The notes under the pieces: generated by a model
Databases searched by the model: none
What the model was told of the DNA's origin: nothing
The model's input: the letters and a program-made list of their open reading frames with translations, nothing else
Program-made: the position numbers and the translations under genes
DNA from: Lachnospiraceae bacterium
Lineage (GTDB): Bacteria; Bacillota; Clostridia; Lachnospirales; Lachnospiraceae
DNA: 42,643 bases
Assembly: GCA_017614155.1 (NCBI GenBank)
Contig: JAGACK010000005.1
Coordinates: forward strand, 1 to 42,643
Direction: 5' to 3'
Shown: positions 6,652-29,867 of the stretch, piece after piece
Layout: the number at the start of each line of letters is the position of its first letter
Position numbering within the stretch: position 1 is the stretch's first letter

Positions 6652-9144
6652 TTATCTGAGTGCTTTCATGTTTATCCACGAAAGTGACAGCACGGCGGGA
6701 AGACAGATCATGATCGGGAAAAAGTATCTGGTATAGGTCCCGTTACATGGACCTGCCAGACAGATGAACATGATGACAAGAAGCGGCACGGTCAGCAGCA
6801 GTGAGCGGCGGTCTTTCTTATAAATATAGAAAAACAAGGCGAGGATCAGGAGCCATGTATATGATCCGATCGACAAAAACAAAGAGAGAACCGGCAGTGA
6901 AAATACGGACTCCCTTGCCTTTTCGTAGGCATAGCGGGCTTCTCTGAATACAAGCGGTCTGTACAGATTCATGCCGCTGACTCCGTGTTCGTCACAACGC
7001 GCATTAACATATACAAAGCCCCCGCCGAGACGACGCTCATATGAGTAATTTTTTGAAAGTGCCTTCCCCGGGAAATAATACTCATAATAGTTATTGATCA
7101 TTGACTGGATATAAACGCCGGGATGCTTGAAAAACATGGATCGCCAGGCCTTCAGATATACAAAAAGATCTGAGGCCGGCGATTTTATCTTAAATGTTCC
7201 TTTTACTGCATCCGATCTGACCGGGTCGTATTCTTCACCAAGAACCGCAGCATCCCAGATGGTATCTATTGCCGCATATTCTTCCGGTGATACATCATTC
7301 GGATAGTCCCGCATATATCTTGCAGTCTGCTGTATGGCTATGGACAGCGGTTCATTATATGTAGTCGGAGAGATCATATTTACCGGATAGATGATCCGGG
7401 TCAGGCAAAGATGTATGGCAATTACTATGACGGCGCCCCTGATCCAGACCGGTCTGTTCTTTCTGTCCGCAAACACATAGATGATCATCTGAACAACGGT
7501 AAAATATGCCGACTCGTTTCTGAGAACAAGAAGTATGACAAGAGTTGCGATATAGAGCGGAACCGTGGCTTTTGTTCTCTGTCTGCCGGTCAGAAGCTTC
7601 CAGAAAAGTATGATATTGATCATATAGAACGGAACATAGAGCACATCTTTGGTTATGACAAAAAGGTAGCTCTGAAAACGCGGCGATAATACAAAGAAAA
7701 GCTGTGTCGACAAAAGAAGGATATCGGATGCGGATTCTTTTGCAAGTGTCTTTATCAGATAAGAAACTGCAAGAAACATCGATACAGTCTGAATGACAGA
7801 GACCAGAAACAGCCCAAAATCTGCCGAGTGAAAAAGGTTCATGCCGAAAAGCAGAAGCCCGTGTATGAGAAGCGTATATGCTACGGGATGGCGCTGATTA
7901 AGCATCACATAGGGTGACAGCAGATTTACGGATTCGTCGCTTCCTCCGGGGATATTGAAAGCCTGAAGTATCATGTCAGCGCTGTCGCCGGTAAATATCG
8001 CCGGGTACGAGAAAATGATATAGGGGAGGTTCACGATCAGAAGCGTCGCAAACGTTACAATATAAGGATGGGACCGGAGAGCGGAAAGATAACGGTTCAG
8101 AATCCCGCAGGAGATCCTGTGATCTTCGGTTTTGCCAAGCTGATGCTCGGCGATGAAAAACAGCGCATTGATCACATAATAAAAAAAGATCAGAAGTCCC
8201 GTAAATGCCATCGCTGATTTGACCACCTGAAGATGATGCCCGAAAACAAGATCCCATGAATCCGTTTCCTGAAAAGAATACCCGAAGAGTGTGCACAGTG
8301 TAAGTATCAGGGACGGTATGCCTGTACACATTTTTTTCCGGATATCTGAAAAGCCTTTCAGACATCTGCCATATACTGCCCTATAAAAGAAAAAGAACAG
8401 CACAAAAAGCACCGGCATCAGAAGACGATCATTTCTGAACAGGGCTGTCACCTGGGATAATGGCAATGTTTCGTCTGTGTAACCGGGTTTTACGGAAAAT
8501 GCCAGGGCTGTCAGTAATGCCGGAACGATACATCCGTATTTTTGATCCGATGTCAGGAAATACACGGATAACAGAACATCCAGCGCCAAAAACCATATCA
8601 GAAGGGAAATAAAGTTTCTCCATTCATTCCACGATCCGTTTATCAGTGAAATACCGTAGATATGAATGTCACCCTGACCGTTAAAACAGATCCTCGTCTC
8701 AAGACCGGTCACATCATCATTTATTATATAATGATATGTTCCGGAGCGCCGTGTCTTGAGCAGTATCTCTTCATCCTGGGGCTCGATCTTTTCTGTCTGC
8801 TCATATGCGTACACATGAAATGACTGATCGGCATCGCACTGATAATCGATCTTTAATGTATAATCGCCTTTCGGAAGATCGATGAACGGTCCATAGATTA
8901 TCTCTGTATCCTCGTCAACAGGAAACCCGCTGTCCCTGTAGAACTGTCCTGTCATATGCCAGCCGCCGTCAGAAAAGGAAATCAAGCGTGACTGCCAGAA
9001 TTCAAGGGGAGGGGTAAGCAAAGAGGCGTTAACCCTTCTGATGCCGGCGATCAGGAGCAGGATGAAAAGGACAGACAGCTCTGATAAAAGTACAAGTCTG
9101 AAAAAACGGTTGTGCAGTAACGATCTGGCGTGGTCTTTATCCAT
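6652..9144 (-). CDS. Large polytopic membrane protein, DUF6020-like (possible GT-C glycosyltransferase)
   Basis: An 830-residue membrane protein. One N-terminal helix (about 17-37) is followed by a predicted extracytoplasmic beta-rich domain (about 45-170), then a dozen or more hydrophobic segments. Motifs recalling the DUF6020 group include FTGDSADMILQ (384-394), the NQRHPVAYTLLIHG stretch and ITKDVLY. An acidic loop residue near the start of a helix followed by conserved polar loops is the general plan of GT-C lipid-linked sugar transferases, so a role in envelope glycan or protein glycosylation is plausible but unproven. It stands alone; the ATG at 9144 has no strong Shine-Dalgarno sequence. 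Confidence 0.6.
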   Translation of the reverse strand: MDKDHARSLLHNRFFRLVLLSELSVLFILLLIAGIRRVNASLLTPPLEFWQSRLISFSDGGWHMTGQFYRDSGFPVDEDTEIIYGPFIDLPKGDYTLKIDYQCDADQSFHVYAYEQTEKIEPQDEEILLKTRRSGTYHYIINDDVTGLETRICFNGQGDIHIYGISLINGSWNEWRNFISLLIWFLALDVLLSVYFLTSDQKYGCIVPALLTALAFSVKPGYTDETLPLSQVTALFRNDRLLMPVLFVLFFFFYRAVYGRCLKGFSDIRKKMCTGIPSLILTLCTLFGYSFQETDSWDLVFGHHLQVVKSAMAFTGLLIFFYYVINALFFIAEHQLGKTEDHRISCGILNRYLSALRSHPYIVTFATLLIVNLPYIIFSYPAIFTGDSADMILQAFNIPGGSDESVNLLSPYVMLNQRHPVAYTLLIHGLLLFGMNLFHSADFGLFLVSVIQTVSMFLAVSYLIKTLAKESASDILLLSTQLFFVLSPRFQSYLFVITKDVLYVPFYMINIILFWKLLTGRQRTKATVPLYIATLVILLVLRNESAYFTVVQMIIYVFADRKNRPVWIRGAVIVIAIHLCLTRIIYPVNMISPTTYNEPLSIAIQQTARYMRDYPNDVSPEEYAAIDTIWDAAVLGEEYDPVRSDAVKGTFKIKSPASDLFVYLKAWRSMFFKHPGVYIQSMINNYYEYYFPGKALSKNYSYERRLGGGFVYVNARCDEHGVSGMNLYRPLVFREARYAYEKARESVFSLPVLSLFLSIGSYTWLLILALFFYIYKKDRRSLLLTVPLLVIMFICLAGPCNGTYTRYFFPIMICLPAVLSLSWINMKALR

Positions 9145-9345: not shown

Positions 9346-10230
9346 ATGATAAAGAGCATGACCGGCTTCGGCAGGTGCGAGGTCTCGGATAATAACAAAA
9401 AATATATCGTCGAGGTCAAAGCGGTTAACCACAGATATCTGGAACTGAACACCAAGCTTCAGAAGGGACTCGCCTGCTTTGATGTAGCAGTGAGAAATAC
9501 CGCAAAGGAATACATGGAGCGCGGCAAGGTGGACATATTCGTTTCCGTGGAGGATGACGGAAAACTGTCCGAAAGAGTCAGATACAACAGTGATATCGCA
9601 GCCCAGTACATGGGATATTTAGAGGAGATGGCCAGTCAGTTCAATCTTGAAAATGATGTCAGGCTCTCAAATCTGTCAAGATACCCCGATGTATTTACGA
9701 TGGAGGATGAGGTCCCGGATGAGGATGAACAGTGGAAGGCCATAGAAAAATGCGTAAGGGGCGCCTGTGAAAACTTTGTGGCGGCGAGGACAGAAGAAGG
9801 GACCAATCTGAAGAACAATCTGATCTCAAAGCTTGACAGCATGAAGGAGTATGTTGAAACGATAGAAAAACGGTCGCCGCAGATCGTGGAGGAATACAGA
9901 AAAAAGCTCACGGAAAGGATAGAGGAGTTTCTGTCATCAACAACGGCAGCGGTGGATGAATCCAGGATTGTCACGGAAGTTACGATATACGCCGACAAGG
10001 TATGCGTTGATGAGGAGATCGTCAGGCTCAAAAGTCATATAGAAAGCATGCGCCAGTGCCTGATGAAGGGCGGAAGCTGCGGCAGGAAGCTTGATTTTAT
10101 CGCACAGGAGATGAACCGCGAGGCAAATACCACTCTTTCAAAGGCCAACGATCTTTTGCTTTCGGACACTGCCATAGAATTGAAAACGATCATCGAAAAG
10201 ATCCGCGAGCAGGTACAGAACATTGAGTGA
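9346..10230 (+). CDS. yicC: YicC/YloC family endoribonuclease
   Basis: The product of 294 residues opens with the family signature MIKSMTGFGR. It ends with the conserved C-terminal DUF1732-type block: GGSCGRKLDFIAQEMNRE, then EANTT and a helix ending EKIREQVQNIE. YicC proteins are RNases that take part in RNA turnover. An in-frame start 84 bases upstream exists, but that stretch holds the promoter, and homologues begin at MIKSMTGFG, so 9346 is preferred. AGGGAG lies about 12 bases before it. First gene of the yicC-remA-gmk-rpoZ cluster; its stop overlaps remA. Confidence 0.93.
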   Translation: MIKSMTGFGRCEVSDNNKKYIVEVKAVNHRYLELNTKLQKGLACFDVAVRNTAKEYMERGKVDIFVSVEDDGKLSERVRYNSDIAAQYMGYLEEMASQFNLENDVRLSNLSRYPDVFTMEDEVPDEDEQWKAIEKCVRGACENFVAARTEEGTNLKNNLISKLDSMKEYVETIEKRSPQIVEEYRKKLTERIEEFLSSTTAAVDESRIVTEVTIYADKVCVDEEIVRLKSHIESMRQCLMKGGSCGRKLDFIAQEMNREANTTLSKANDLLLSDTAIELKTIIEKIREQVQNIE

Positions 10231-10489
10231 TCTGATAAATGTCGGTTTCGGCAATATAGTAAATATGGACCGGGTGATAGCCATAGTAAGTTCGGATTCG
10301 GCACCCGCAAAACGAACCGTGAAAAACGCCAAGCTTTCGGGACTTGCGATAGATGCAACACATGGCAGGAAGGCAAAGGCAGTGATCGTTATGGAAAACA
10401 ATCAGGTTGTATTATCTGCCCTTGCCCCTGAGACTCTTTTCCAGCGTGTGACACAGGAAACGGAGAAAAATGATGCAAAAGATCAATAA
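10223..10489 (+). CDS. remA: RemA/DUF370 family DNA-binding regulator
   Basis: Small protein of 88 residues matching RemA throughout: INVGFGNIV near the N-terminus, then SSDSAPAKR, IDATHGRKAKAVIVM and VVLSALAPET. In Bacillus subtilis RemA activates matrix and osmoprotection genes; its role here is unknown. The only start that keeps the N-terminal strand is a TTG at 10223, inside the end of yicC (8-bp overlap), with AGGTAC upstream. A TTG start and overlap suggest translational coupling to yicC. The 3' end overlaps gmk by 20 bases. Confidence 0.9.
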   Translation: MSDLINVGFGNIVNMDRVIAIVSSDSAPAKRTVKNAKLSGLAIDATHGRKAKAVIVMENNQVVLSALAPETLFQRVTQETEKNDAKDQ

Positions 10490-11108
10490 TCGTGGTATAC
10501 TTACAGTCGTTTCGGGCTTTGCGGGCTCAGGCAAGGGGACTCTGATGAAAAAGCTCCTTGAGAATTATGACGGCTATGCCCTTTCGGTCTCAGCGACATC
10601 GAGATCTCCGAGGCCGGGAGAAAAAGAGGGCGTCAGCTATTTTTTCAAAAGCCGCAGTGAGTTTGAAAAAATGATAGAGGACGACGGCTTTCTCGAGCAT
10701 GCCGAATATGTCGGAAATTATTACGGCACACCGAAGGATTTCGTTTTTTCAAAGCTTGACGAGGGGTTTGATGTTATTCTCGAGATAGAGATCCAGGGTG
10801 CCATGCAGATAAAGGAAAGATTTCCGGACACGCTTCTTGTTTTTGTTATGCCGCCGGGCGCAGAGGAACTGAAAAGCCGTCTGGTCGGGCGGGGAACAGA
10901 GACGCCGGAGATTATCGAAAAAAGGATGAAACGGGCAGCCGCCGAATCCGAGGGCATCGAAAAATATGATTTTATCGTCGTCAATGATGATATCGATAAA
11001 TGCACAAAGCAGCTTCATGAGATAATACAGGCTGCGCACTTTACTCCGTCACATCAGATGGAGTTTATACAGGAAATCAGGAAAGAATTAAAAAAACTGG
11101 AGGGATAA
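10470..11108 (+). CDS. gmk: Guanylate kinase
   Basis: Phosphorylates GMP to GDP using ATP. The 212-residue product has the P-loop SGFAGSGKGT (15-24), a variant of the more usual SGPSGAGKGT. It also has the GMP-binding SATSRSPRPGE and GVSYFF segments, a GNYYGTPKDF block, EIEIQGAMQIK, and the lid region around RLVGRGTE. Start is ATG at 10470 or the adjacent ATG at 10473, both served by GGAGA at 10461-10465. It overlaps remA and is followed three bases later by rpoZ. Confidence 0.96.
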   Translation: MMQKINNRGILTVVSGFAGSGKGTLMKKLLENYDGYALSVSATSRSPRPGEKEGVSYFFKSRSEFEKMIEDDGFLEHAEYVGNYYGTPKDFVFSKLDEGFDVILEIEIQGAMQIKERFPDTLLVFVMPPGAEELKSRLVGRGTETPEIIEKRMKRAAAESEGIEKYDFIVVNDDIDKCTKQLHEIIQAAHFTPSHQMEFIQEIRKELKKLEG

Positions 11109-11421: not shown

Positions 11422-11475
11422 GTGTGCTGTCTTAAAAAGGGCAGTTTTGCGCCGGTCAGTGACCGCATTTCCGAT

Positions 11476-12810
11476 ATGAAAACTACTACCCTGATGTTCA
11501 TTTCTTTGGGCTGTGACAAGAACCTGGTGGATACCGAGCATATGCTTGGAATTCTCGGAAGAGAAGGATTTGAGTTCACTCAGGATGAAACGCAGGCCGA
11601 TATCATAGTGATCAATTCCTGCTGTTTTATAGGCGATGCAAAAGAGGAAAGCATCAATACCATAATCGAAACAGGAAAGCTGAAGGAAACAGGGCGTCTT
11701 AAAGGCCTCATCGTATGCGGGTGCCTTGCCCAGAGATATGCCGGTGATATCAGAAGGGAACTTCCGGAGGTTGATGCCATAGTAGGCACCACGGAGTATA
11801 CAAGGATCGCTGAGGCCGTAAAGGAAGTGCTGGAGGGAAACAGTCCGGAGCTTGTCGGAAATACGGATGCGGCGGAATACCCGAAAGGCGAAAGGATCCT
11901 TACCGGAGGAGGATATTCATCATATCTGAAGATCTCCGAAGGGTGTGATAAAAACTGTACCTACTGCATCATTCCGAAGGTGAGGGGCAGATACAGAAGC
12001 TTTCCTGAGGAGGTCCTGTTAAATGAAGCCCGGTCGCTTGCAGAAAAAGGGGTGAAGGAGCTTGTTCTGGTAGCTCAGGAAACAACGGTCTACGGCAGGG
12101 ATATTTACGGAAAAAAACGGCTCCCGGATCTGCTAAAGAAGCTTTGCGGCATAGAAGGGCTTGAATGGATCAGGATCATGTATTCCTATCCCGAAGAGAT
12201 AGACGATGCACTGATAGATGTGATGTCATCGGAAGAAAAGGTCTGCCATTATCTTGATATGCCCATACAGCATTGCAGCGACAGGATATTAAGGTTAATG
12301 GGCAGAAGGACTGACAGAAAAAGCCTTGAAAAAACGATAAAAAAGCTCAGGGAGAGAATCCCTGATATTGCTCTTCGGACCACGCTGATCTCAGGCTTTC
12401 CCGGAGAGACAAAAAAGGACCACGAGGAGCTTCTGTCATTTGTCGAAGAGATGAGATTTGACAGGCTCGGAGTCTTTGCCTACTCAAGGGAGGAAGACAC
12501 GCCGGCAGCTTCGTTTGACGGCCAGGTCCCGGTCCGAACCGCAAAAAAGAGAAGAGATGAGATCATGTCCCTGCAGCAAAGGATAGCCTTTGAAAAAGAA
12601 GCGGGCATGGCAGGAAGAGAAATGACTGTCATGATAGAGGGCTCCCTGGCGGAAGATGATGTTTATGTGGGCAGGACCTACCGCGATGCGCCTGATGTGG
12701 ACGGCTATGTATTTTTGAAAAACACCCCGCGGCGGTTTATGTCGGGAGATCTTGTAAAGGCTCGCATCACCGGAGCGAACGGATATGATCTGACAGGAGA
12801 TATCATATGA
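11476..12810 (+). CDS. rimO: Ribosomal protein S12 (uS12) methylthiotransferase
   Basis: Radical-SAM enzyme that methylthiolates the conserved Asp of ribosomal protein S12. The product of 444 residues has the UPF0004 domain with cluster cysteines C13 (SLGCDKNLVD), C49 or C50 (NSCCF) and C83 (CGCLAQRY). The radical-SAM triad is C157-C161-C164 in EGCDKNCTYCIIPKVRG. A C-terminal TRAM domain follows (about 380-444). The SLGCDKN signature favours RimO over the tRNA enzyme MiaB. I start at the ATG of MKTTTLMFISLGC; a GTG at 11422 in frame would add 18 poorly conserved residues. The ribosome binding site is weak for either. The stop overlaps pgsA. Confidence 0.93.
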   Translation: MKTTTLMFISLGCDKNLVDTEHMLGILGREGFEFTQDETQADIIVINSCCFIGDAKEESINTIIETGKLKETGRLKGLIVCGCLAQRYAGDIRRELPEVDAIVGTTEYTRIAEAVKEVLEGNSPELVGNTDAAEYPKGERILTGGGYSSYLKISEGCDKNCTYCIIPKVRGRYRSFPEEVLLNEARSLAEKGVKELVLVAQETTVYGRDIYGKKRLPDLLKKLCGIEGLEWIRIMYSYPEEIDDALIDVMSSEEKVCHYLDMPIQHCSDRILRLMGRRTDRKSLEKTIKKLRERIPDIALRTTLISGFPGETKKDHEELLSFVEEMRFDRLGVFAYSREEDTPAASFDGQVPVRTAKKRRDEIMSLQQRIAFEKEAGMAGREMTVMIEGSLAEDDVYVGRTYRDAPDVDGYVFLKNTPRRFMSGDLVKARITGANGYDLTGDII

Positions 12811-14638: not shown

Positions 14639-16444
14639 ATGAAGCGTATCATAGATCTGAACAATAATGAAGACTATTTTGCCAGGAAGACCTTTGGGAG
14701 ATTCCTGATACCTACGGTTATTTCCCTGACCGGAACGCTTGTTGCGGGGTTTGCGAACACCCTGATGGCCGGGCGTTTTCTTGGAAAGGAAGCGCTCTCG
14801 GTAATGGGGATCCTCCAGAGCTTTACCTTTCTGTACTCCATGCTCGGCTGCCTGATATCCATAGGAGCATCAACAAGGGCAGCGGTCGCGCTGGGAAAGG
14901 GTGATCATGATACGGCAGCAAAATATGAGTGGCTGTCACTTGTGCTTTCCGTGGTGATCCCTCTGGTCATTTCCCTTCCCTGTCTTGTCTTTTTCAGGGG
15001 ACTGTTTTCAGCCCTGGGAGGCGATGAAGCGGCATATGCTATCGGCGCCGGCTATGGGAGGCTTGTCATAGGCTTTGGCTTTCTTGGCACACTCATCTAT
15101 TTTCCTTTTAATTTCTTAAGGCTCATCGGTAAGGGGAAATATTCGACCATAGCTTTCACAGCCATGGGAATATCCGATATCATACTCGTCTATGCTTTTC
15201 TGAAAGCAGGCATGGGACTTTCCGGCATAGCCGCAGGTTTTATACTGTCAATGACGATCGCCTGCATCATAAGCATGTTCTTTCTTTTTACAAAGAATCA
15301 CTTCTTCAAAATGAAGAGGCCTTTGGCAAAGGATCTTCTTTTGATGACAAAACACATACTGTCATACGGGAGCGCATCGGCGCTCAATAATCTGTGCAGG
15401 CTGATCAGGACCGCGGCAATGAACATACTTGTTTCAAAGTATCTGGGAAGGGACGGAATTGCATCCCTTGCCGTGGCATTTTCCATAATGAACCTTGCAT
15501 CGGCAACAGTGACGGGCTTCGGGCAGGCTGTCTCTCCGATCATCGGAGTGCAGCGCGGGGAGCGCGACAGGAGGGCACAGAGGGAGACAATGAAAGTCAG
15601 TGTTTTCTATGCCTTTGTTTTCCATGTGCTCATAGCGGCTTTCATTTCGCTTTTTGCCACACCGATAGCCGGATTTTTCGGAGTGACGGGAGGCGCGCTT
15701 GCAGCTGACACGACCCTTCTAATCCGGCTTACCGCTGTTAGCCTTATACCTTCGGCTGTCATGAATGTGCTCATTTATTATTATACGGCCATAGGAGAGA
15801 ATATCGGTTCCATGATCCTTACCGCCATGCATGTCCTTGTGTTCCCGGTAATTTTTACCGCTCTGCATCTTTCAAGCGACGCTTCAAACTGGTACGGGAT
15901 GTCATTTACGCTGGCAGAGCTTTTGGACTTCGGAGTCATGGCGGTCTATAGTATATTCAGGATGAAGAAACGCAGCGATCTGACCGGGATACTCCTTGAA
16001 GAAAAGGTATATTCCGAGAAGTTCTTTGCAACAAGTTCTGACGGAACAGAGGAAGGCGCGGTGAAGACCTCGACCGAGGTGGTCGCATTCTGCGAAGAAA
16101 ATGATGTGGATGCCGTACTGTGCATGAAGCTCCCGCTTGTCGTTGAGGAGCTGCTGGTCATCCTGGCAAGACACTGCGCCGCGGACACTTCGGACTTCAG
16201 GGTGGATGTCAGGATATCCCTCACTGCCGACGAGGTCATCATGAGAATGAGGTGCGGAGGAGTGGTATTCAATCCGGTAGAATGGTTCCGCGACAGGAAG
16301 GAAAAGCTCAGCCCGGATAAATTTATGGAGGATGAAAGCTTTGGCATGAATGTGGTTGACAAGCTGGCGCAGAAAGTCAAATATTCAAATGTGTTTGACA
16401 TGAATAACCTGATCATTTCAATGGGAACGGCAGTTGCAAAATGA
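14639..16444 (+). CDS. MATE family transporter fused to a degenerate GHKL ATPase-like domain
   Basis: The first 450 of 601 residues form a 12-helix MATE (NorM/DinF-type) exporter: an N-terminal lobe with LMAGRFLGKEALSVMG and a second lobe starting near 240. Residues 455-600 are an extra cytosolic domain resembling RsbW/HATPase_c_2: a helix VVEELLVILARHC (501-513) where the N-box should be, a strand-turn IMRMRCGGVVFNP (534-546) where the ATP-lid Asp-x-Gly should be, and FGMNVVDKLAQKV (568-580) as the G2-like box. The N-box Asn and the G1 Asp appear replaced, so ATP binding may be lost. ATGA overlap with the GNAT gene, and the PP2C phosphatase two genes on, suggest a partner-switch type sensor circuit. 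Transported substrate is unknown. Confidence 0.82.
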   Translation: MKRIIDLNNNEDYFARKTFGRFLIPTVISLTGTLVAGFANTLMAGRFLGKEALSVMGILQSFTFLYSMLGCLISIGASTRAAVALGKGDHDTAAKYEWLSLVLSVVIPLVISLPCLVFFRGLFSALGGDEAAYAIGAGYGRLVIGFGFLGTLIYFPFNFLRLIGKGKYSTIAFTAMGISDIILVYAFLKAGMGLSGIAAGFILSMTIACIISMFFLFTKNHFFKMKRPLAKDLLLMTKHILSYGSASALNNLCRLIRTAAMNILVSKYLGRDGIASLAVAFSIMNLASATVTGFGQAVSPIIGVQRGERDRRAQRETMKVSVFYAFVFHVLIAAFISLFATPIAGFFGVTGGALAADTTLLIRLTAVSLIPSAVMNVLIYYYTAIGENIGSMILTAMHVLVFPVIFTALHLSSDASNWYGMSFTLAELLDFGVMAVYSIFRMKKRSDLTGILLEEKVYSEKFFATSSDGTEEGAVKTSTEVVAFCEENDVDAVLCMKLPLVVEELLVILARHCAADTSDFRVDVRISLTADEVIMRMRCGGVVFNPVEWFRDRKEKLSPDKFMEDESFGMNVVDKLAQKVKYSNVFDMNNLIISMGTAVAK

Positions 16445-17490
16445 GTGGATCAAAAAACAGGGAAGTGACTCTGATAAACAGAAAAAAGAATGATGAAAAG
16501 ACATTTACCCTCAGGCCCTTTGTTTACGGGGACGAGGCTTCCGTGATAGAATGTGTCCGGGAGGAATACGGTGACACATATTACCGGAGGGAGTATTACG
16601 ATGAAAAGCTCCTGGCCGAGGAGGTGGAATCCGGCAGGCTTCTTTTATATCTGGCTTGCTGCGGAGAAGAAGTGTGCGGCTTCCAGTCGCTGATCCGTTT
16701 TCTGCCGAAGGAGACCAGGATAGAAGCGGCATCGCAGATTTTCAAAAAGAAATACAGGGGATATTCTCTTCCCTATGAGCTTGTAAAATATACTTATGAG
16801 ATCGCAAAGGATCTGCATCCGAGCTGCATATACGCGTCAATGGTCGTGTTTCATAATATCACCCAGGGCATGTGCGAACGTGCGGGGATGACCCCGGTCG
16901 CGTTCAATCTCGGAAGCCACCTGACCTCAAAGATGCACAACAGCTACAGGCTTGGAGACAGCGAGAAATATGCCCAGGCCATAATGGTTCTTCCGGTTGA
17001 CAAACAGGATGCCGGGAGGGTCTATATTCACCCTGATATAGCGCAGAAGGCATCAAAACTGTATTCCGATCTGAAAGTCAGTGTCGATATCGTGACCGGG
17101 CCGGAAGAAAATGAGCATAATAAGAACGGTCATCTGTCCGAAAGCAGATTCGAAGTATCGGTCAATGAAAGAGAGCAGAGCATCAGCGTATATGTCGGGG
17201 CGATCGGAGATGATCTTGCAAAAAAGGTAACGGAGATACGGGATCAGCATCCGGGGAAGTACTGGACGATACAGCTGATACTGCCTGTTGACAGACCGGA
17301 AGCAGTCGGCGCTTACGAGGCGCTTGTCAGGGAAGGTTTTTATTTTGTGGGGCTTCGTCCTCTGTGTTCGGATACGGAACAGATCTTTTTGCAGTACACG
17401 GGAGATGTGTTTTTTGATTTTGATGAGTTCAGCCTGATAAAGGGATTTGAGGAACTGCTTTGCATGATAAGGGATGGTAAGAAAGCATGA
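16441..17490 (+). CDS. GNAT-fold acetyltransferase-like protein
   Basis: Soluble, 349 residues. Residues 22-190 follow a GNAT plan: FTLRPFVYGDEASVIECVREEYGD as strand 1 and helix 1, a LYLACCGEEVCGFQSL hairpin, then KKKYRGYSLPYELVKYTYEIAK in the acetyl-CoA loop position, where the usual RxxGxG reads KKYRGYS. A block with a catalytic-like NITQGMCERAGMTPV follows. The C-terminal half (205-349) is alpha/beta and may be a second, degenerate GNAT-like lobe. Start and stop overlap both neighbours by four bases, so the three proteins are made together. The acetyl acceptor is unknown and could be a protein of this circuit. Confidence 0.65.
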   Translation: MSGSKNREVTLINRKKNDEKTFTLRPFVYGDEASVIECVREEYGDTYYRREYYDEKLLAEEVESGRLLLYLACCGEEVCGFQSLIRFLPKETRIEAASQIFKKKYRGYSLPYELVKYTYEIAKDLHPSCIYASMVVFHNITQGMCERAGMTPVAFNLGSHLTSKMHNSYRLGDSEKYAQAIMVLPVDKQDAGRVYIHPDIAQKASKLYSDLKVSVDIVTGPEENEHNKNGHLSESRFEVSVNEREQSISVYVGAIGDDLAKKVTEIRDQHPGKYWTIQLILPVDRPEAVGAYEALVREGFYFVGLRPLCSDTEQIFLQYTGDVFFDFDEFSLIKGFEELLCMIRDGKKA

Positions 17491-19661
17491 AGAAGATTTT
17501 TAATAAGAAGAGATCACTTGGAACAACTATTCTTATTTCGATGGTAGCGCTTGTCGTACTGACACTGATCATCGTTACCGTTGTGTCTGCATTCAAGTTA
17601 AGATCGATGCAGAGAGAACTGGTCGAATATAACGGCAGGCTCGGGGACAGGGCAGGCGAGATGTCTTCCGAATCCATGAAGGAAGAAGTGACTGAACATC
17701 TGATGAGCATAGCATCAGGACAGGCAGATATCGTTGATTCAAATTTCTCGCATTTCAGGTCGACCGTTGAACTCCTGGCAAGCGATGCCACATATCTGTA
17801 TGAGCATCCCGGAGAATTCGGGAGGATCACGATAGAAGAGCCGAAGGCGGAAAATGACGGGAAGCTGGTTGTCCATATCACTCACAGCAAAGATACTGAT
17901 ATGGAGGATCCTGCCATCATAGATGAGGCCGGACTGCTTGGTAATGAGTCCAATACACTGATGTCTGCCCATGCCGGAAACCCGTCCATGGCAAAGTGCT
18001 ATATCGCAACCGAGACGGGGCTTATGATAGAGGCTGACAGGGATTCTTCGGCAAAGATAACCGAGGACGGCACTGTCGCTTTTTATGAGGCGCACGAGCG
18101 TCCCTGGTATGTGGGCACAAAAGAAGCGAACGCCACTTTCTTTACAAATGTTACTCCCGAGGCCAGCGGCAAGAGGATCGGCATGATGTGCGGCAGTCCC
18201 GTGACCAGAAACGGAAAATTCATGGGCGTTGCCTGCGCGGGCATGTATCTTGATGATGTAGATAAAATGGTACAGACAGCGCGCCTTGGAAAAGACGGCA
18301 TAGCCTGCATCGTAAATAATCAGGGACAGCTCCTGTTCTCCTCCGAAAACACCGGTGAGCTTTCGATCACAAAGGAGACTGCCGATCTCGACCTCCGGCA
18401 GTCGGATAATAAAGAACTTGCAGCTCTTGTCACCGATGCCATGGACGGACTTGAATCCTACAGAGTGGTAGAGGTGAACGGCAAAACATATTATGTGGCA
18501 TTTTCGCCCATGGAAACAGTCGGATGGTCGTTCCTTATAATGCTCCCGGAGGACACGGTACAGCAGCCGACGCAGGCTCTGCTCGAGGAGATAGGCAGCA
18601 TTACATTCGAGGCTGAAAACCAGACAAAAGCCGCGATGAATACACTTTTGCTGGGAATCCTTTTCACCGGATTCATGGCGATCCTTTTCGCATTCATCCT
18701 GGCATATTTTATCTCACGCTTTGCAGTAGCGCCCCTGCAGAAGCTTACAGCCAAGGTCGGTCAGATACAGGGTGATGATCTTGATTTTGAATGGGAGGAA
18801 GTGAACGAGGAAGAGATACAGACGCTGGCGCAGTCATTTGGAAATATGACGCAGCGTATGAAGGATTATATCGAAGAAGTAACAAGGATAACTGCCGAAA
18901 AGGAAAAGATCGGCGCGGAGCTTTCCGTTGCGACACAGATACAGGCGGACATGCTGCCGAGGATATTCCCTCCGTTTCCTGACAGGAAGGAATTTGATAT
19001 ATATGCAACGATGGATCCCGCAAAAGAGGTCGGCGGTGATTTTTATGACTTCTTCCTGATTGATGATGATCATCTCGGTCTTGTTGTAGCGGATGTTTCG
19101 GGAAAGGGTGTTCCTGCGGCGCTGTTCATGGTCATTGCAAAAACACTTATAAAGAACCGCGCGCTCATGAACGGTTCGCCGTCAGAGGTTCTCTCGTATG
19201 CAAATGAGCAGCTTTGCGAAGGAAATGAAGCTGAGCTTTTTGTCACTGTATGGTTTGCTATCATAGAGATCTCAACAGGAAAAGGCGTGGCGGCAAATGC
19301 GGGACATGAGCATCCTGCCATAAAAAGAGCCGGAGGGCAGTGGGAACTTTCGATCTACCGTCATTCACCTGCTGTCGCTACCATGGAAGGCATCAGATTC
19401 AGGGAACATGAATTTGAGCTTAATCCCGGCGATGAGCTTTATGTCTATACCGACGGAGTTCCTGAGGCTACAAATATACACGATGAACTGTTCGGTCCGG
19501 AGCGCATGCTCGAATCCCTGAACAGGGATCCGGATGCGGGTGTGGAAGATCTGCTGAAGAGTGTAAAGAAGGATGTTGACGACTTTACCGGGGAGGCGCC
19601 CCAGTTTGATGATATTACCATGCTCGGGCTCAAGTGGCATGGAACGGATCGGAAACTGTAA
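17487..19661 (+). CDS. Cache-HAMP sensor with PP2C (SpoIIE/RsbU-type) phosphatase output
   Basis: A 724-residue membrane receptor. TM1 is at about 12-36; an extracellular double-Cache domain follows (about 50-375, with ERPWYVGTKEAN near 205 and GWSFLIMLPED near 346). TM2 is at about 387-410, HAMP at 410-465 and a coiled linker ERITAEKEKIGAELSVATQIQ-like at 465-486. The PP2C domain (about 505-718) keeps its metal motifs: KEVGGDFYDFF (D518), ADVSGKGVPAALFM (D536), YTDGVPEA (D656) and FDDITMLGL (D708/D709). SpoIIE-type phosphatases usually dephosphorylate a STAS-domain anti-anti-sigma factor; none is encoded nearby, so the target is open. It overlaps the GNAT gene by four bases and ends the operon. 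Confidence 0.92.
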   Translation: MKKIFNKKRSLGTTILISMVALVVLTLIIVTVVSAFKLRSMQRELVEYNGRLGDRAGEMSSESMKEEVTEHLMSIASGQADIVDSNFSHFRSTVELLASDATYLYEHPGEFGRITIEEPKAENDGKLVVHITHSKDTDMEDPAIIDEAGLLGNESNTLMSAHAGNPSMAKCYIATETGLMIEADRDSSAKITEDGTVAFYEAHERPWYVGTKEANATFFTNVTPEASGKRIGMMCGSPVTRNGKFMGVACAGMYLDDVDKMVQTARLGKDGIACIVNNQGQLLFSSENTGELSITKETADLDLRQSDNKELAALVTDAMDGLESYRVVEVNGKTYYVAFSPMETVGWSFLIMLPEDTVQQPTQALLEEIGSITFEAENQTKAAMNTLLLGILFTGFMAILFAFILAYFISRFAVAPLQKLTAKVGQIQGDDLDFEWEEVNEEEIQTLAQSFGNMTQRMKDYIEEVTRITAEKEKIGAELSVATQIQADMLPRIFPPFPDRKEFDIYATMDPAKEVGGDFYDFFLIDDDHLGLVVADVSGKGVPAALFMVIAKTLIKNRALMNGSPSEVLSYANEQLCEGNEAELFVTVWFAIIEISTGKGVAANAGHEHPAIKRAGGQWELSIYRHSPAVATMEGIRFREHEFELNPGDELYVYTDGVPEATNIHDELFGPERMLESLNRDPDAGVEDLLKSVKKDVDDFTGEAPQFDDITMLGLKWHGTDRKL

Positions 19662-19791: not shown

Positions 19792-20337
19792 ATGAAATTT
19801 GAAGATGTTGTAAAGAAGGTAAAAGCAAATCTGAAAAAAGCAGATGCCGGAAAAGTAGGCGATCATGTTGCAGTACAGTTCGACATCACCGGCGAAGGCG
19901 AAGGAGCTTTTTATGTTGAAGTAAAAGACGGAGCCATCGAAGTTGAACCTTTTGAGTACATGGATCATGACATCAAGGTTACTGCATCAGCCGATGATAT
20001 CCTGATGATCACTTCAGGAAAGATCAGCTACACCGAACTGCTTTCGGACGGAAGGGCATACGGAGACGGAATCAAGGCATCAAAGATGGATGCGCTTGAG
20101 TTCAAGGCAGCAGCCGCAAAGAAGCCGGCCGCAAAGAAGCCCGCAGCAAAAAAGGCAGCAGCAAAGAAACCGGCAGCAAAGAAAACCGCAGCAAAGAAGC
20201 CGGCAGCAAAGAAACCGGCCGCAAAGAAAACCGTGGCAAAGAAGACAACAGCAGCTGCAGCAAAAAAGACAACAGCAGCAAAGAAGCCTGCCGCAAAGAA
20301 AACGACAGCAGCAAAAAAGCCGGCCGCAAAGAAGTGA
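19792..20337 (+). CDS. SCP2-like lipid-binding domain with histone-H1-like Lys/Ala/Pro tail
   Basis: Small protein of 181 residues in two unlike parts. Residues 1-103 form a compact acidic alpha/beta domain of SCP2 (sterol carrier protein) type: a VVKKVKANLKKADAG helix, then strands with VAVQFDITGEGEGAFYVEV, IEVEPFEY, and KVTASADDILMITSGK followed by SYTELLSDGRAYGDG. Residues 104-181 are almost only Lys, Ala, Pro and Thr in near-repeats of AAKKPAAKK, like eukaryotic histone H1 or bacterial HU tails. The tail DNA is built from imperfect GCAAAGAAGCC units. It has its own promoter and terminator. A nucleic-acid or polyanion-binding tail is inferred; the lipid ligand is unknown. Confidence 0.8.
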   Translation: MKFEDVVKKVKANLKKADAGKVGDHVAVQFDITGEGEGAFYVEVKDGAIEVEPFEYMDHDIKVTASADDILMITSGKISYTELLSDGRAYGDGIKASKMDALEFKAAAAKKPAAKKPAAKKAAAKKPAAKKTAAKKPAAKKPAAKKTVAKKTTAAAAKKTTAAKKPAAKKTTAAKKPAAKK

Positions 20338-25925: not shown

Positions 25926-28900
25926 ATGTATCAGATAGTACTTGCGATTCAGATAACCAGCATAGCAGCGCTTTTTGTCGAGGCTGTCGTGGTATTCAGA
26001 AACTGGAGGAGTACCACGCATTCATGGCTGTTTTTAAGCTGCGCGGCAACCCTTGTAAACAACATAGGGTATTTTTTCGAGCTTATCAGCAGTACGGAAG
26101 CAGAATATGTGACAGCATTGAAGATATCCTATTTCGGAAGGATATGGCTGCCGTTTGCCCTGTTCATGTTTGTTCTGGTTTTTGTGAAGGCAAAGATACA
26201 GAATCTGACAAAGTATATCCTTTCGGTTATGAATATCATCACATATCTGATCGTCATTACCACAGACAGGACGGGATTATATTATAAGTACACTATGTTC
26301 TCGCATCAGGGAGACTTTCCGATCTTTTATCATATAGACGGAATCTGGCATTTCCTGTGGTCGGGAATGATTATTTTTTACGCCGTTTTCGGGATAATGC
26401 ACCTTGTGCTGGCATACCGCAGGGAAAAGAGATCGACTTCAAAAAAACGCATTCTTTATGTGATCTGCGCGGTCCTGACCCAGAGTCTCTTTTTTGTGAT
26501 CGAGTCTTTCAGGATCATCCCGTTTATCGAACAGGTCTATGATGTGACGATGCTGAGTTTTCCCATAGCGGCTGTTTTCATGCTTATCGCGATATTCCGT
26601 TATGACCTTCTTGATACTGAGGATCTTGCAAAGGAATATGTGGTAAATGAACTTTCGGAGTGCATCATAGCAACAGATGAGGATGATGTCGTCCGGTTTT
26701 ATAATAAATCCGCTCTGACTATTTTCCCTGCGCTTACGGCAAATCCCGAAAGCGTGATCAGAAGGATCAGGAGAAGGATCAGGACCGGCAAGCCCTTAAA
26801 GGTCAAAGGCAGGGTCTATTCGCCCGAAGAAAAGACACTGATGCAGAACGGCAATCCGGCGGGAGCGATATTCGCGCTTGTGGATGATACTGATCATTAC
26901 CGGTACATGACTGAGCTTGAAAAGCAAAAGAGCCTGGCAGATGCTGCAAACAAGGCAAAGTCTGCTTTTCTTGCAAATATGTCGCATGAGATCAGGACGC
27001 CCATAAACGCGGTGCTCGGAATGGATGAGATGATCCTTCGTGAAAGCAGGGAAAAGGATATCATTTCCTATGCTTCGGATATCAGGTCCGCCGGCCGTAC
27101 GCTCCTTTCGCTGATAAATGATATCCTGGATTTTTCAAAGATCGAAGAAGGCAGGATGGAGATTATCCCAACGCAGTACGAACTGTCATCGCTTATCGGG
27201 GACCTCGTGAACATGATAAGGAGCCGTGCGGAAAAGAAGGGCCTTGTATTTGAGGTGGAGGTGGAGGAGTCCATTCCGCATGTATTATACGGAGATGAGA
27301 TCAGGATCAAGCAGGTCGTGCTGAACCTTCTGACCAATGCAGTCAAGTATACTGAGGCGGGTACGGTGAAGCTGGAGGTCTTTCATGAAGAGCTTACGGA
27401 AGAAGAGATAAATCTGGGATTTACGATTTCCGATACCGGCATAGGCATGAAGGATGAGGATATGACGAAACTCTTTTCGCCTTTTTCCAGGATAGAGGAA
27501 AAGAGAAACCGTACGATCGAGGGAACGGGACTTGGCATGAGCATAGTGGAGAATCTGCTTGAGCTCATGGATTCAAAGCTTGATGTTTCAAGCGAATACG
27601 GGAAGGGATCGAAGTTCTCGTTTTCATTGAAGCAGAAGGTCATAAAGAACAGTCCCATCGGGGATTTTTCAGCCAGGTACGAAAGGGTAGTGCATTCGCC
27701 CGGTCAGTACAGGGAGCTTTTCCGCGCGCCGGATGCTCGTGTGCTTGTTGTGGATGATACCGAGGTGAACCTTACTGTCATCACAAATCTCCTGAAGGCA
27801 ACAAGGATAAGGGTAGACACTGTGCTTTCCGGAAAGGATGCCATAGCCGCCTGTACGAAGAATGATTATGATGTTGTCTTTATCGATCATATGATGCCGG
27901 AGATGGACGGCATAGAGACGCTTCATGAACTGAAAAAAATGGACCAGGCAGGGAAGGCTGCTCCGGTATATGTTGCGCTTACTGCAAATGCCGTATCGGG
28001 CGCAAGGGAAAGGTATCTGAATGAAGGCTTTTCAGATTACATTTCAAAACCGGTGGACGGGATCAGGCTAGAGGAACTGTTAAAGAGCTATCTGCCGAAA
28101 GAAAAGATCAGAGAGTATGTTCCGGATGAACGAAACGGTGTTGTTTCTGATAATAAAAACATACGCCGCGATATCCTTGTCGTGGATGATGATGAGGTCA
28201 TCTGCACTACCGTAAAGGCGATCCTCGGAAAAACTTTTGAGATTAAAAGCTGCATGGATGGCAATGAGGCTCTTATTATCGCAAAGAACGATCATCCTGA
28301 TCTCATACTGCTTGATATCAACATGTCCGGAATGAACGGATTTGAAGTGTTTGAAAAACTGAAGGCTGATCCTTCGACAAAGGATATCCCCGTGATGTAT
28401 ATCACTGCTGATGAGGACAGGGAAAAGGAGGCGTCCGCGCTCAGAAACGGGGCGCAGGATCTCATCAGAAAGCCTTTTGTTCCCGAGGTGCTCCTGCAGC
28501 GGTGTAAACGGACCATTGCCCTTGACAGGTATCAGAAGAACCTGCAGGGAGAAGTGGTTAAACAGACCGACAGGGCGGAAAGGCTCAATCAGGAGATGAT
28601 GTTTGCGCTTTCGCGGACCGTCGATGCGAAGGACCATTATACGAACGGTCACTCGGAGAGGGTGGCATCGTATTCTGCAGAGATCGCCAGGAGGCTTGGC
28701 AAGAGCTTTGAAGAGCAGAAAAAGATTTATGAGATGGGGCTTCTCCATGATATCGGAAAGATAGGAGTCCCGGAGGAGATCATAAACAAGACGGCAAAGC
28801 TTACCGATGAGGAATTTGAAAAGATCAAAGAGCATACCACCATCGGACATGAGATACTGAAAAACATCACTGACATGCCCGAGCTTTCAAACGGGGCGCG

Positions 28901-29867
28901 CTCGCATCATGAAAAGTACAACGGAAGCGGATATCCAGATCATCTTTCGGGTGATGCCATACCCGAGGAGGCGCGCATTATCTGTGTGGCTGACTGCTAC
29001 GATGCGATGACGAGTACCAGGACCTATTCAAAGCCCAAGGCTCAGGATGCAGTCAGGGCTGAGATAGAAAGGTGCAAGGGCACGCAGTTCGATCCCGTTG
29101 TTGCCGATGTCATGATAGCGATGATCGATGATGACACGGACTATATCATGAATGAGCAGAATGACGGCAGGACCGTCTGGAAGGGAAGGGAACTGCTCCT
29201 GAATCCCCATGCGGCAGCATACGATATGCATGAAAAGGATGAGGCGGAGTCTTCGGATCAGTCCGAAGACGGGACGGCAGCCGAAGTGCCTGCGTGGCTT
29301 TGTGACATACCGCAGATCGATATAAAGGCCGGCGTGGCCAACTGCGGATCAGAGGACAGCTTCCTTTCGGTGGTAAAGGTATTTCATCAGACCGCGGCAT
29401 CAAAGGCGGACGAGATAGAAAGGCTTCATGATGAAGGCGATATCGAAAACTATACCATCAGGGTCCATGCCCTGAAAAGCTCGGCGCGCATAATAGGAGC
29501 ATCAAAGCTTTCGGAAATGGCAAGAAAGCTTGAAGAAGCCGGAAAGGAAAATGACAGGGGATACATAGATGCCAATACAGGAGAAATGCTGGCAGCCTAC
29601 CGGGAGCTTGACGGCAGGCTTTCTGCAGGGGATGAAGAAAGGAAAGAAGGCCCTGTCCTTTCGGAAGATGCGCGCAGGGATGCCTTTAATACCATATCCG
29701 AGATTGCAGGCAGCATGGACTTTGGAATGATGGAGGACCTTTTGGCTGAACTTGACGGTTACGCGCTTTCAGAAGAGGACAGCGGGTTTCTTTCGGATAT
29801 CAGGAACAGCCTTATGAAGCTGGACTGGGACAGGATCACGGATATATGCAAAAGCGCATTGAAGTGA
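25926..29867 (+). CDS. Hybrid sensor histidine kinase with two receivers, HD-GYP and Hpt domains
   Basis: A 1313-residue multidomain regulator. A 7TM N-terminal sensor region (1-225) is followed by a short PAS-like segment (about 240-325). HisKA phospho-His is H354 in MSHEIRTP. HATPase_c has N471 in LLTNAVKY, DTGIGM (503-508) and GTGLGMSI (533-540). The first receiver has acceptor D654 in FIDHMMPEMDG; the second has D797 in LLDINMSGMNG. HD-GYP (about 890-1070) has H940-D941 and HHEKYNGSGYP (994-1004), so its metal and c-di-GMP phosphodiesterase motifs look intact. The Hpt domain (about 1140-1205) has H1181 in VHALKSSAR. It could run a whole phosphorelay and end in c-di-GMP breakdown within one chain. 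No ligand or cognate regulator is evident; the two-receiver protein at 35293 is one candidate. The ribosome binding site is weak. Confidence 0.95.
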   Translation: MYQIVLAIQITSIAALFVEAVVVFRNWRSTTHSWLFLSCAATLVNNIGYFFELISSTEAEYVTALKISYFGRIWLPFALFMFVLVFVKAKIQNLTKYILSVMNIITYLIVITTDRTGLYYKYTMFSHQGDFPIFYHIDGIWHFLWSGMIIFYAVFGIMHLVLAYRREKRSTSKKRILYVICAVLTQSLFFVIESFRIIPFIEQVYDVTMLSFPIAAVFMLIAIFRYDLLDTEDLAKEYVVNELSECIIATDEDDVVRFYNKSALTIFPALTANPESVIRRIRRRIRTGKPLKVKGRVYSPEEKTLMQNGNPAGAIFALVDDTDHYRYMTELEKQKSLADAANKAKSAFLANMSHEIRTPINAVLGMDEMILRESREKDIISYASDIRSAGRTLLSLINDILDFSKIEEGRMEIIPTQYELSSLIGDLVNMIRSRAEKKGLVFEVEVEESIPHVLYGDEIRIKQVVLNLLTNAVKYTEAGTVKLEVFHEELTEEEINLGFTISDTGIGMKDEDMTKLFSPFSRIEEKRNRTIEGTGLGMSIVENLLELMDSKLDVSSEYGKGSKFSFSLKQKVIKNSPIGDFSARYERVVHSPGQYRELFRAPDARVLVVDDTEVNLTVITNLLKATRIRVDTVLSGKDAIAACTKNDYDVVFIDHMMPEMDGIETLHELKKMDQAGKAAPVYVALTANAVSGARERYLNEGFSDYISKPVDGIRLEELLKSYLPKEKIREYVPDERNGVVSDNKNIRRDILVVDDDEVICTTVKAILGKTFEIKSCMDGNEALIIAKNDHPDLILLDINMSGMNGFEVFEKLKADPSTKDIPVMYITADEDREKEASALRNGAQDLIRKPFVPEVLLQRCKRTIALDRYQKNLQGEVVKQTDRAERLNQEMMFALSRTVDAKDHYTNGHSERVASYSAEIARRLGKSFEEQKKIYEMGLLHDIGKIGVPEEIINKTAKLTDEEFEKIKEHTTIGHEILKNITDMPELSNGARSHHEKYNGSGYPDHLSGDAIPEEARIICVADCYDAMTSTRTYSKPKAQDAVRAEIERCKGTQFDPVVADVMIAMIDDDTDYIMNEQNDGRTVWKGRELLLNPHAAAYDMHEKDEAESSDQSEDGTAAEVPAWLCDIPQIDIKAGVANCGSEDSFLSVVKVFHQTAASKADEIERLHDEGDIENYTIRVHALKSSARIIGASKLSEMARKLEEAGKENDRGYIDANTGEMLAAYRELDGRLSAGDEERKEGPVLSEDARRDAFNTISEIAGSMDFGMMEDLLAELDGYALSEEDSGFLSDIRNSLMKLDWDRITDICKSALK

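What the first reader, a model, noticed from the sequence alone, without database searches (positions are those of the whole stretch)
14639..19661. Coupled MATE-GHKL fusion, GNAT-like protein and Cache-HAMP-PP2C phosphatase
Three genes overlap by exactly four bases each (16441-16444, 17487-17490). The transporter carries a C-terminal RsbW-like domain whose N-box Asn and G1 Asp appear replaced. A SpoIIE-type phosphatase with an extracellular Cache sensor is co-expressed, yet no STAS protein or sigma factor is present. Partner-switch parts seem to have been rewired to gate an exporter, perhaps with acetylation as the covalent mark. I know of no described system with this composition.
Basis: partly seen in the sequence, partly recalled or inferred. 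Interest (0 to 1): 0.72.

Follow-up and report, generated by a model that had tools for sequence, protein, structure and literature searches.

The report
Signal-gated exporter with built-in pseudokinase
Three neighbouring genes in an unnamed bacterium, whose relatives come from the rumen, look like the transporter-facing end of a known kind of bacterial on/off phosphorylation switch whose other parts sit elsewhere in the same genome; the switch would turn an export pump on or off rather than genes, which nobody has yet tested in the laboratory.

Summary
In detail: MATE exporter plus GHKL-like domain, GNAT-like protein and Cache-HAMP-PP2C phosphatase, with two 4-base ATGA overlaps. The GHKL-like domain is homologous to RsbW (hhalign 98.0%, E 1.8e-13), but its N-box Asn and G1 Asp are replaced in 10 of 10 (window and 9 orthologues): a strongly conserved pseudokinase. 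'No STAS' is true of the window, not of the genome: a STAS protein with the usual serine and the only stand-alone RsbW-type kinase lie on two other contigs; two close relatives keep this split. In some other relatives STAS and/or RsbW stand inside the cluster. GNAT directly precedes PP2C in 10 of 10 named relatives, and the three genes changed place as a block. Best reading: partner switching whose end target is the exporter's own pseudokinase. Acetylation as the covalent mark is not supported. MATE-GHKL fusion itself is common in the order (40 of 40 sampled frames). A sigma-factor output remains a real rival: an ECF sigma factor like one beside PP2C-RsbW-STAS in a relative lies 6 kb from this genome's STAS. 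New variant of a known kind.

The parts
14639..16444 (+). MATE-family exporter fused to a C-terminal RsbW-like (GHKL) domain, 601 aa
   Evidence: MatE E 1.8e-27; 58-80% identity to 9 orthologues
16001..16441 (+). RsbW-like pseudokinase domain, residues 455-601
   Evidence: hhalign of its family (A6) to stand-alone RsbW-type kinases of such clusters (A9) prob 98.0, E 1.8e-13; A9 hits RsbW 6m36 E 1.9e-10 and SpoIIAB about 6e-4
16145..16177 (+). N-box helix (residues 503-513, EELLVILARHC): Glu kept, Asn replaced by Ile
   Evidence: alignment with 7 stand-alone RsbW, 7 of 7 with Asn
16244..16276 (+). G1 box (residues 536-546): Asp replaced by Cys (RMRCGG)
   Evidence: Cys in 10 of 10 (window and 9 orthologues)
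16441..16444 (+). ATGA stop/start overlap, MATE to GNAT
   Evidence: exact 4-base overlap also in 7 of 9 relatives with the pair, 8 and 29 bases in the other two (ORF starts as called)
16441..17490 (+). GNAT-like protein, 349 aa: GNAT-like part about residues 1-200; the C-terminal half looks like a second GNAT half to my eye only
   Evidence: 9 of 11 members hit Acetyltransf_1; profile hits PDB acetyltransferases, best E 4.6e-4
17487..17490 (+). ATGA stop/start overlap, GNAT to PP2C
   Evidence: exact 4-base overlap in 3 of 9 relatives with MATE-GNAT-PP2C
17487..19661 (+). Cache-HAMP-PP2C (SpoIIE-type) phosphatase, 724 aa
17673..18536 (+). dCache_1 sensor, residues 63-350
   Evidence: E 3.7e-20; Arg and Trp-Tyr of the amino-acid motif kept, its Asp is Gly (placement mine)
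19062..19637 (+). PP2C catalytic domain with GGDFYD, ADVSGKG, TDG and DD motifs

Best explanation
A partner-switching module whose output is a transporter. A ligand bound by the Cache domain acts through HAMP on the PP2C phosphatase, which dephosphorylates a small STAS protein. An RsbW-type kinase, encoded in trans in this genome (contig C44), rephosphorylates it. In its unphosphorylated form the STAS protein (contig C49) docks on the RsbW-like domain at the end of the MATE exporter; that domain has lost ATP-site residues and so serves as a dock, not as a kinase; docking switches export. The GNAT-like protein goes with the phosphatase/kinase part, most likely as a regulatory or adaptor acyl-CoA-binding subunit. 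Shown: gene structure, homology, loss of the catalytic residues with strong conservation, PP2C and STAS motifs, clusters with STAS and/or RsbW in some relatives, the trans split in this clade. Inferred: STAS docking, which STAS and kinase are the partners, direction of gating, GNAT role, ligand, cargo.
For: STAS, RsbW and PP2C stand with MATE-GHKL and/or this GNAT in relatives: L048 STAS-X206-MATE-GNAT-PP2C-RsbW, L046 and L049 STAS upstream, L051 RsbW-GNAT-PP2C-STAS; L061 RsbW-MATE-GNAT-PP2C-STAS, L068 STAS-MATE/GHKL-GNAT-PP2C-RsbW; L134 and L136 STAS..MATE/GHKL..PP2C-RsbW; L232, a genome sharing only the phylum, MATE/GHKL-GNAT-PP2C-RsbW. Own genome: STAS C49 and RsbW C44, same split in G029 and G026 with the same neighbours; C44 is the only stand-alone HATPase_c_2 over cut-off. 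The fused domain changes less than its own transporter part (pN 0.067 v 0.149, 0.111 v 0.135, 0.106 v 0.139, 0.154 v 0.248 against L042-L045) though N and D are gone. Among fused domains in STAS+RsbW clusters 7 of 9 lineages lost the Asn, against 7 of 31 without such neighbours in the fetched stretch (Fisher p 0.004). GNAT is fused to an RsbW-like domain in L233-L235 (Pfam-checked for L233).
Against: The Fisher contrast is not corrected for relatedness and the profile was seeded with degenerate members: without seed lineages 3 of 5 v 7 of 31, p 0.12; the G1 Asp is lost in only 5 of the 9. Two STAS/RsbW clusters (L182, L204) keep the Asn, and L061 has an unfused MATE. In 6 of 10 named loci neither STAS nor RsbW is in the cluster (L042-L045, L047, L050; several contigs short). 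STAS-RsbW pairs occur in much of the genus without this GNAT, and G001 (66% complete), which has the block, shows no close STAS or kinase. Relative L130 has an ECF sigma factor beside PP2C-RsbW-STAS, and a 53% identical sigma factor lies about 6 kb from the STAS gene here.
Confidence: 0.5

Rival explanations
1. Regulated export cassette: the gene between MATE and PP2C makes the cargo. The GNAT-like protein acylates a small molecule which the MATE exports, and the phosphatase arm only decides when. Partner switching on the exporter may still apply.
For: In sister clusters ligases stand beside the MATE-GHKL: an ATP-grasp protein in L134 and L174, GH3-type enzymes in L136, L174, L178 and L182. 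The own-genome paralogue at C48 follows an AMP-binding/reductase protein and an ATP-grasp protein.
Against: The GNAT stays with PP2C/RsbW/STAS where no MATE directly precedes it (L051, L062, L063, L064, L065; L051 near a contig end, L063 with an unfused MATE downstream) and is fused to an RsbW-like domain in L233-L235, which favours a signalling role.
Confidence: 0.24
2. The fused domain is only structural, and the phosphatase acts on STAS/RsbW to control a sigma factor; the exporter is merely co-transcribed. A mixed form, one STAS/kinase pair serving both a sigma factor and the exporter, is also possible.
For: PP2C-RsbW-STAS-ECF sigma cluster in L130 (Sigma70_r2 E 2e-17). This genome has 7 Sigma70_r2 hits; one, on C49 about 6 kb from the STAS gene, is 53% identical over 152 aa to the L130 sigma factor.
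Against: No sigma factor on the window's contig. The fused domain changes less than the transporter and is fused, not just adjacent.
Confidence: 0.22
3. One reading: no STAS protein is involved and acetylation by the GNAT replaces phosphorylation as the mark on the exporter.
For: GNAT lies between exporter and phosphatase with 4-base overlaps.
Against: STAS and kinase exist in the genome and in cis in some relatives; the phosphatase has the PP2C motifs; the window's GNAT has YRGYSLP where the recalled CoA motif wants G and G/A.
Confidence: 0.03

Closest known systems
RsbW-RsbV / SpoIIAB-SpoIIAA partner switching with RsbU/RsbP/SpoIIE phosphatases (recalled)
   Same: RsbW-type kinase, STAS protein with serine, sensor-coupled PP2C phosphatase
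   Different: Here a second RsbW-like domain without the ATP-site residues is built into a MATE exporter, and a GNAT-like protein goes with the phosphatase; no sigma factor on the window's contig
SiaABCD of Pseudomonas aeruginosa (PMC7647112, abstract and outline seen)
   Same: PP2C SiaA, kinase SiaB and target SiaC in a partner switch tied to the diguanylate cyclase SiaD, an output that is not a sigma factor; SiaA is the top NCBIfam match of the window PP2C (E 1.6e-23)
   Different: 83 bits against a cut-off of 700; output here would be an exporter
MlaB-MlaF (PMC7367683, passages seen)
   Same: A STAS protein that regulates a transporter
   Different: ABC transporter; whether MlaB can be phosphorylated is left open there; no GHKL domain on the transporter (recalled)
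Other MATE-GHKL fusions of the order (own genome C48; C16 doubtful)
   Same: Same domain order
   Different: 24 of 31 sampled without STAS/RsbW neighbours keep the N-box Asn; C48 keeps it and stands beside a STAS-APH fusion

Membership tests
RsbW/SpoIIAB (HATPase_c_2) kinases: MATE C-terminal domain | homology to RsbW | tested here: met
   hhalign A6 v A9 prob 98.0, E 1.8e-13; the 10 orthologues alone 95.5. Comparisons: A6 v GNAT set 0.1, A6 v X206 set 80.3 over 43 columns. The window's Pfam hit alone is below cut-off. No structure.
RsbW/SpoIIAB (HATPase_c_2) kinases: MATE C-terminal domain | N-box Asn (role in Mg-ATP binding recalled) | tested here: not met
   Ile/Val in 10 of 10 (window and 9 orthologues); Asn in 7 of 7 stand-alone RsbW
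RsbW/SpoIIAB (HATPase_c_2) kinases: MATE C-terminal domain | G1 box DxG | tested here: not met
   Cys for Asp in 10 of 10
SpoIIE/PP2C phosphatase | metal-binding Asp motifs | tested here: met
   GGDFYD, ADVSGKG, TDG, DD present in the window protein; SpoIIE E 1.5e-43
GNAT acetyltransferase | GNAT profile match | tested here: inconclusive
   window none; 9 of 11 members weakly; PDB acetyltransferases best E 4.6e-4 by profile
GNAT acetyltransferase | acetyl-CoA motif Q/RxxGxG/A (recalled) | tested here: inconclusive
   window YRGYSLP; relatives in A3 mostly [YF]RGYGLP, L045 and L047 YRGYGLA, L051 YRGLGLP
STAS anti-anti-sigma proteins (C49, in trans) | phosphorylatable Ser in the SSAGLR motif (site recalled) | tested here: met
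   SSAGLR in 17 of 17 STAS proteins that I chose for the alignment, C49 included
partner switching | mutually exclusive, phosphorylation-dependent binding of STAS to kinase and target | not testable with these tools
   needs binding assays
SiaA | NCBIfam NF038263 cut-off 700 bits | tested here: not met
   83.1 bits

The most novel reading that the evidence does not exclude
A widespread signalling class in which partner switching ends not at a sigma factor but at an exporter: the transporter carries a catalytically dead copy of the anti-sigma kinase as the dock for the STAS protein, a live copy of the same kinase and a ligand-sensing phosphatase set the switch, and one gene slot beside the pump holds exchangeable enzymes (GNAT, GH3, ATP-grasp). 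Export of a small molecule would thus be gated post-translationally by an outside signal.
Probability: 0.42. Interest if true: 0.77.

Novelty: new variant of a known kind. Interest (0 to 1): 0.57.

Why it matters
If true, it adds a post-translational output (gating of a secondary transporter) to partner switching, gives a testable role for the many MATE-GHKL fusions of Lachnospiraceae and their kin, and is a clear case of a pseudokinase kept as a docking site. It also gives a way to look for the exported molecules, since ligase genes sit in several of these clusters.

Tried and rejected
A direct profile search of the PDB with the fused domain gave only designed repeat proteins through one helix: rejected as artefact. 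I first labelled the 206-aa gene next to STAS a pseudo-GHKL (scripts print pGHKL); its alignment A10 was contaminated by one STAS protein, and the clean set A11 gives 1.7% against RsbW but 80.3%, E 1.4e-5, over 43 columns against the fused domain: unresolved, called X206 here. In alignment A5 one row (L064) was mis-cut; replaced in A8. Co-occurrence of the C49 STAS with the GNAT block was tested and is not specific: STAS-RsbW pairs exist across the genus. 'A new protein architecture' was rejected: MATE-GHKL is common. Papers: six searches of the held open-access library; no listed title or abstract start describes a MATE-GHKL protein or a STAS-gated MATE. Subscription journals are mostly not covered.
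Full report
What is there. The three ORFs and both ATGA overlaps are as reported. The first is a MATE exporter (MatE E 1.8e-27) with a C-terminal stretch that only weakly matches HATPase_c_2 (E 0.0034, below cut-off); the third is a dCache_1-HAMP-SpoIIE/PP2C phosphatase (HAMP below cut-off); the second has no Pfam match alone, but 9 of 11 family members weakly match Acetyltransf_1 and the family profile hits PDB acetyltransferases (best E 4.6e-4). cinA ends 17 bases before the MATE gene; the next gene starts 130 bases after the PP2C gene.

The fused domain. A profile of 13 such domains (A6) aligns to 8 stand-alone RsbW-type kinases (A9) over 108 columns with probability 98.0, E 1.8e-13; the 10 orthologues alone give 95.5. 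For comparison A6 v the GNAT set gives 0.1 and A6 v the X206 set 80.3 over 43 columns (65.2 with a set that held a stray STAS row). A9 reaches solved RsbW (E 1.9e-10) and SpoIIAB (about 6e-4). The N-box Asn is Ile/Val and the G1 Asp is Cys in 10 of 10 (window and 9 orthologues), while 7 of 7 stand-alone kinases have both. The domain changes less than the transporter part: non-synonymous difference 0.067 v 0.149 (L042), 0.111 v 0.135 (L043), 0.106 v 0.139 (L044), 0.154 v 0.248 (L045); synonymous sites are near saturation, so dN/dS values are rough. Four Cys of the domain (485, 495, 513, 539) are invariant in 10 of 10.

Is the block a unit? In 61 genomes (own plus 60 relatives) the GNAT protein is found in 6, own included, all of the same genus. 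A scan of the named species genomes gave 10 loci, all titled Lachnospiraceae or Pseudobutyrivibrio MAGs, 4 of the 10 titles naming a rumen. GNAT is directly followed by Cache-HAMP-PP2C in 10 of 10, and directly preceded by MATE-GHKL in 9 of 10. Five of these 10 are the same records as hits (contig lengths agree). In 392 genomes of the order 8 others match: in 6 of 8 Cache-HAMP-PP2C is the next gene on the strand (L061-L065, L068, the last with a gap of about 600 bases), in 2 not (L066, L067, weak hits); a MATE precedes GNAT in L061 (unfused) and L068 (fused). In L065's genome (G198) a MATE-GHKL with RsbW and STAS lies on another short contig. In 398 genomes of the phylum 24 others match, most weakly; I fetched 9 regions from 7 of these genomes. 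L232 repeats MATE-GHKL, GNAT, PP2C, RsbW; L233-L235 (two of one genus) have GNAT fused to an RsbW-like domain (HATPase_c_2 E 1.6e-22 in L233), with no PP2C next; L238 has PP2C-RsbW and STAS about 3 kb away; L236, L237, L239 and L240 have neither in the stretch. Between the window and L042 the same neighbourhood is recognisable, but the three genes lie before yicC in L042 and after cinA in the window, so they changed place as a block.

The missing parts. The genome has four STAS hits, one of them fused to an APH domain, three PP2C phosphatases and one stand-alone HATPase_c_2 protein over cut-off. Two STAS/PP2C pairs sit together on C39 with two ABC transporters, a radical-SAM protein and a GH3 enzyme; the third free STAS (C49) has no phosphatase beside it, and the kinase (C44) stands alone. 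In G029 and G026, which have the same MATE-GNAT-PP2C block, the C49 and C44 loci have the same neighbours; the STAS is 98 and 97% identical, the kinase 72 and 74%. G001, also with the block but 66% complete, shows no close match to either. Of the 10 named loci STAS is in the cluster in 4 (L046, L048, L049, L051) and RsbW in 2 (L048, L051); 6 show neither, several on short contigs. Elsewhere: L061 and L068 have both, L062-L064 have STAS and a kinase fused to the phosphatase. So the window looks like a dispersed version. Against a specific link: STAS-RsbW pairs also occur in many genus members without the GNAT. The STAS motif SSAGLR is present in 17 of 17 proteins chosen for alignment. Of 20 phosphatases aligned, those that reach the motifs have them (L043 and L049 are cut short), with one changed residue in L051, L061 and L064.

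Sigma factors. The genome has 7 Sigma70_r2 hits, none on the window's contig. One, on C49 about 6 kb from the STAS gene, is 53% identical over 152 aa to the ECF sigma factor that follows PP2C-RsbW-STAS in L130. So a sigma-factor target for the same STAS and kinase cannot be excluded, alone or besides the exporter. Ten neighbours typed in L068, L134, L136, L174, L204 and L232 held no sigma domain.

MATE-GHKL in general. A search of 392 genomes gave matches in 73; by my count of the listing 69 frames are 550-700 aa, not all of them checked. I fetched the 40 best of these beyond four already held; 40 of 40 are MATE plus this domain. Five of 40 have STAS and RsbW near (L173, L174, L182, L193, L204), three PP2C only. 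Counting the orthologue group as one, and adding L068, L134 and L136, 7 of 9 lineages with STAS and RsbW lost the Asn (5 of 9 the G1 Asp), against 7 of 31 without such neighbours in the stretch (30 loci and C16) (p 0.004); leaving out lineages that seeded the profile, 3 of 5 v 7 of 31 (p 0.12). Six rows with partial context were left out (L178, L184, L185, L190, L207, C48; one of the six, L178, lost the Asn). L232, not in these counts, has Ser for Asn and Asn for Asp (my reading of the sequence). Sampling by score favours relatives of the seeds, so this is a lead, not proof.

Mechanism. The economical model is a partner switch: RsbW kinase and Cache-PP2C set the phosphorylation of STAS; STAS would bind the dead RsbW copy on the exporter, as it binds the live one. 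The GNAT goes with PP2C and RsbW even where no MATE directly precedes it (L051, L062-L064; L065 with PP2C alone), so I take it as part of the signalling half. But MATE-GHKL clusters elsewhere hold an ATP-grasp protein (L134, L174) or GH3-type enzymes (L136, L174, L178, L182), so a cargo-making role is a serious rival.

The sensor. In 17 of 17 aligned phosphatases of GNAT clusters (L044, truncated, left out) the Cache domain keeps the Arg and Trp of the amino-acid motif (then Tyr, in L064 Phe) but has Gly for what I take to be its final Asp; the 3 others aligned (L134, L135, L142) have Asp. The motif, with Arg contacting the carboxyl group, is from passages of PMC10104139; placing it on the window is mine. 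A ligand with a carboxyl but no amino group is a guess worth testing.

Literature. SiaABC is a partner switch tied to a diguanylate cyclase (PMC7647112, abstract and outline); MlaB is a STAS protein on an ABC transporter (PMC7367683, passages); a review of STAS-only proteins has no word beginning with 'MATE' (PMC8256260, passages). Searches listed nothing whose title or abstract start describes a MATE-GHKL or STAS-gated MATE in that library.

Noticed in passing
L233:7501-9045, L234:7432-8910, L235:7887-9395: One protein joins an RsbW-like ATPase domain to this GNAT family in three genomes of the phylum (two of one genus); a direct link between the two.
   Followed up: partly
L134:8329-9681; L174:6412-8013 and 9788-10948; L136:6077-7681; L182:4520-6280; L178:4283-5845: GH3-type enzymes or ATP-grasp proteins lie in MATE-GHKL clusters, as if the exporter serves a small natural product.
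   Followed up: partly
L241:2995-3489 (contig C49): ECF-type sigma factor about 6 kb from the STAS gene, 53% identical over 152 aa to the one beside PP2C-RsbW-STAS in L130.
   Followed up: partly
L028:5847-6146, L137:7425-7724, L138:761-1060: The free STAS protein is 97-98% identical between species whose kinase, MATE, GNAT and PP2C are about 72-82% identical.
   Followed up: no
L028:5176-5796 and relatives (alignment A11): A 206-aa protein with no Pfam family (X206) stands beside the STAS gene in several genomes; 1.7% against RsbW but 80.3% over 43 columns against the fused MATE domain.
   Followed up: partly
L027:2821-15005 (contig C39); L048:13972-18447: Two ABC transporters (one with Peptidase_C39) next to STAS/PP2C pairs, a radical-SAM protein and a GH3 enzyme; a similar ABC pair follows the GNAT cluster in L048. 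The NHLP label in my scripts is recalled.
   Followed up: partly
L136:4502-5608 and 11465-12601; L134:12244-13467: MATE-GHKL/STAS/PP2C/RsbW clusters beside proteins with an eCIS core domain; in L136 also a phage-tail P2 I domain: perhaps a contractile injection locus.
   Followed up: no
L048:6351-6617, L130:4268-4567, L139:12046-12345: Short ORFs with Gly-Gly leader-like stretches (VSGG, VAGG) near the switch genes; may be secreted peptides (my reading).
   Followed up: no
L010:5469-9250 (contig C48): MATE-GHKL with intact N-box next to a STAS-APH fusion and a tyrosine phosphatase, downstream of AMP-binding and ATP-grasp enzymes.
   Followed up: partly
window 17673-18536: Cache domain keeps Arg and Trp of the amino-acid motif, but the Asp position is Gly in 17 of 17 aligned GNAT-cluster phosphatases and Asp in 3 of 3 others.
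   Followed up: partly
window 19792-20337: SCP2-like domain followed by a long Lys/Ala/Pro tail with a below-cut-off match to histone H1-like HC2.
   Followed up: no
window 6652-9144: A minus-strand DUF6020 gene lies where the three-gene block sits in L042.
   Followed up: no
window 25926-29867: 1313-aa hybrid sensor: 7TM histidine kinase, receiver domains, HD domain and Hpt.
   Followed up: no
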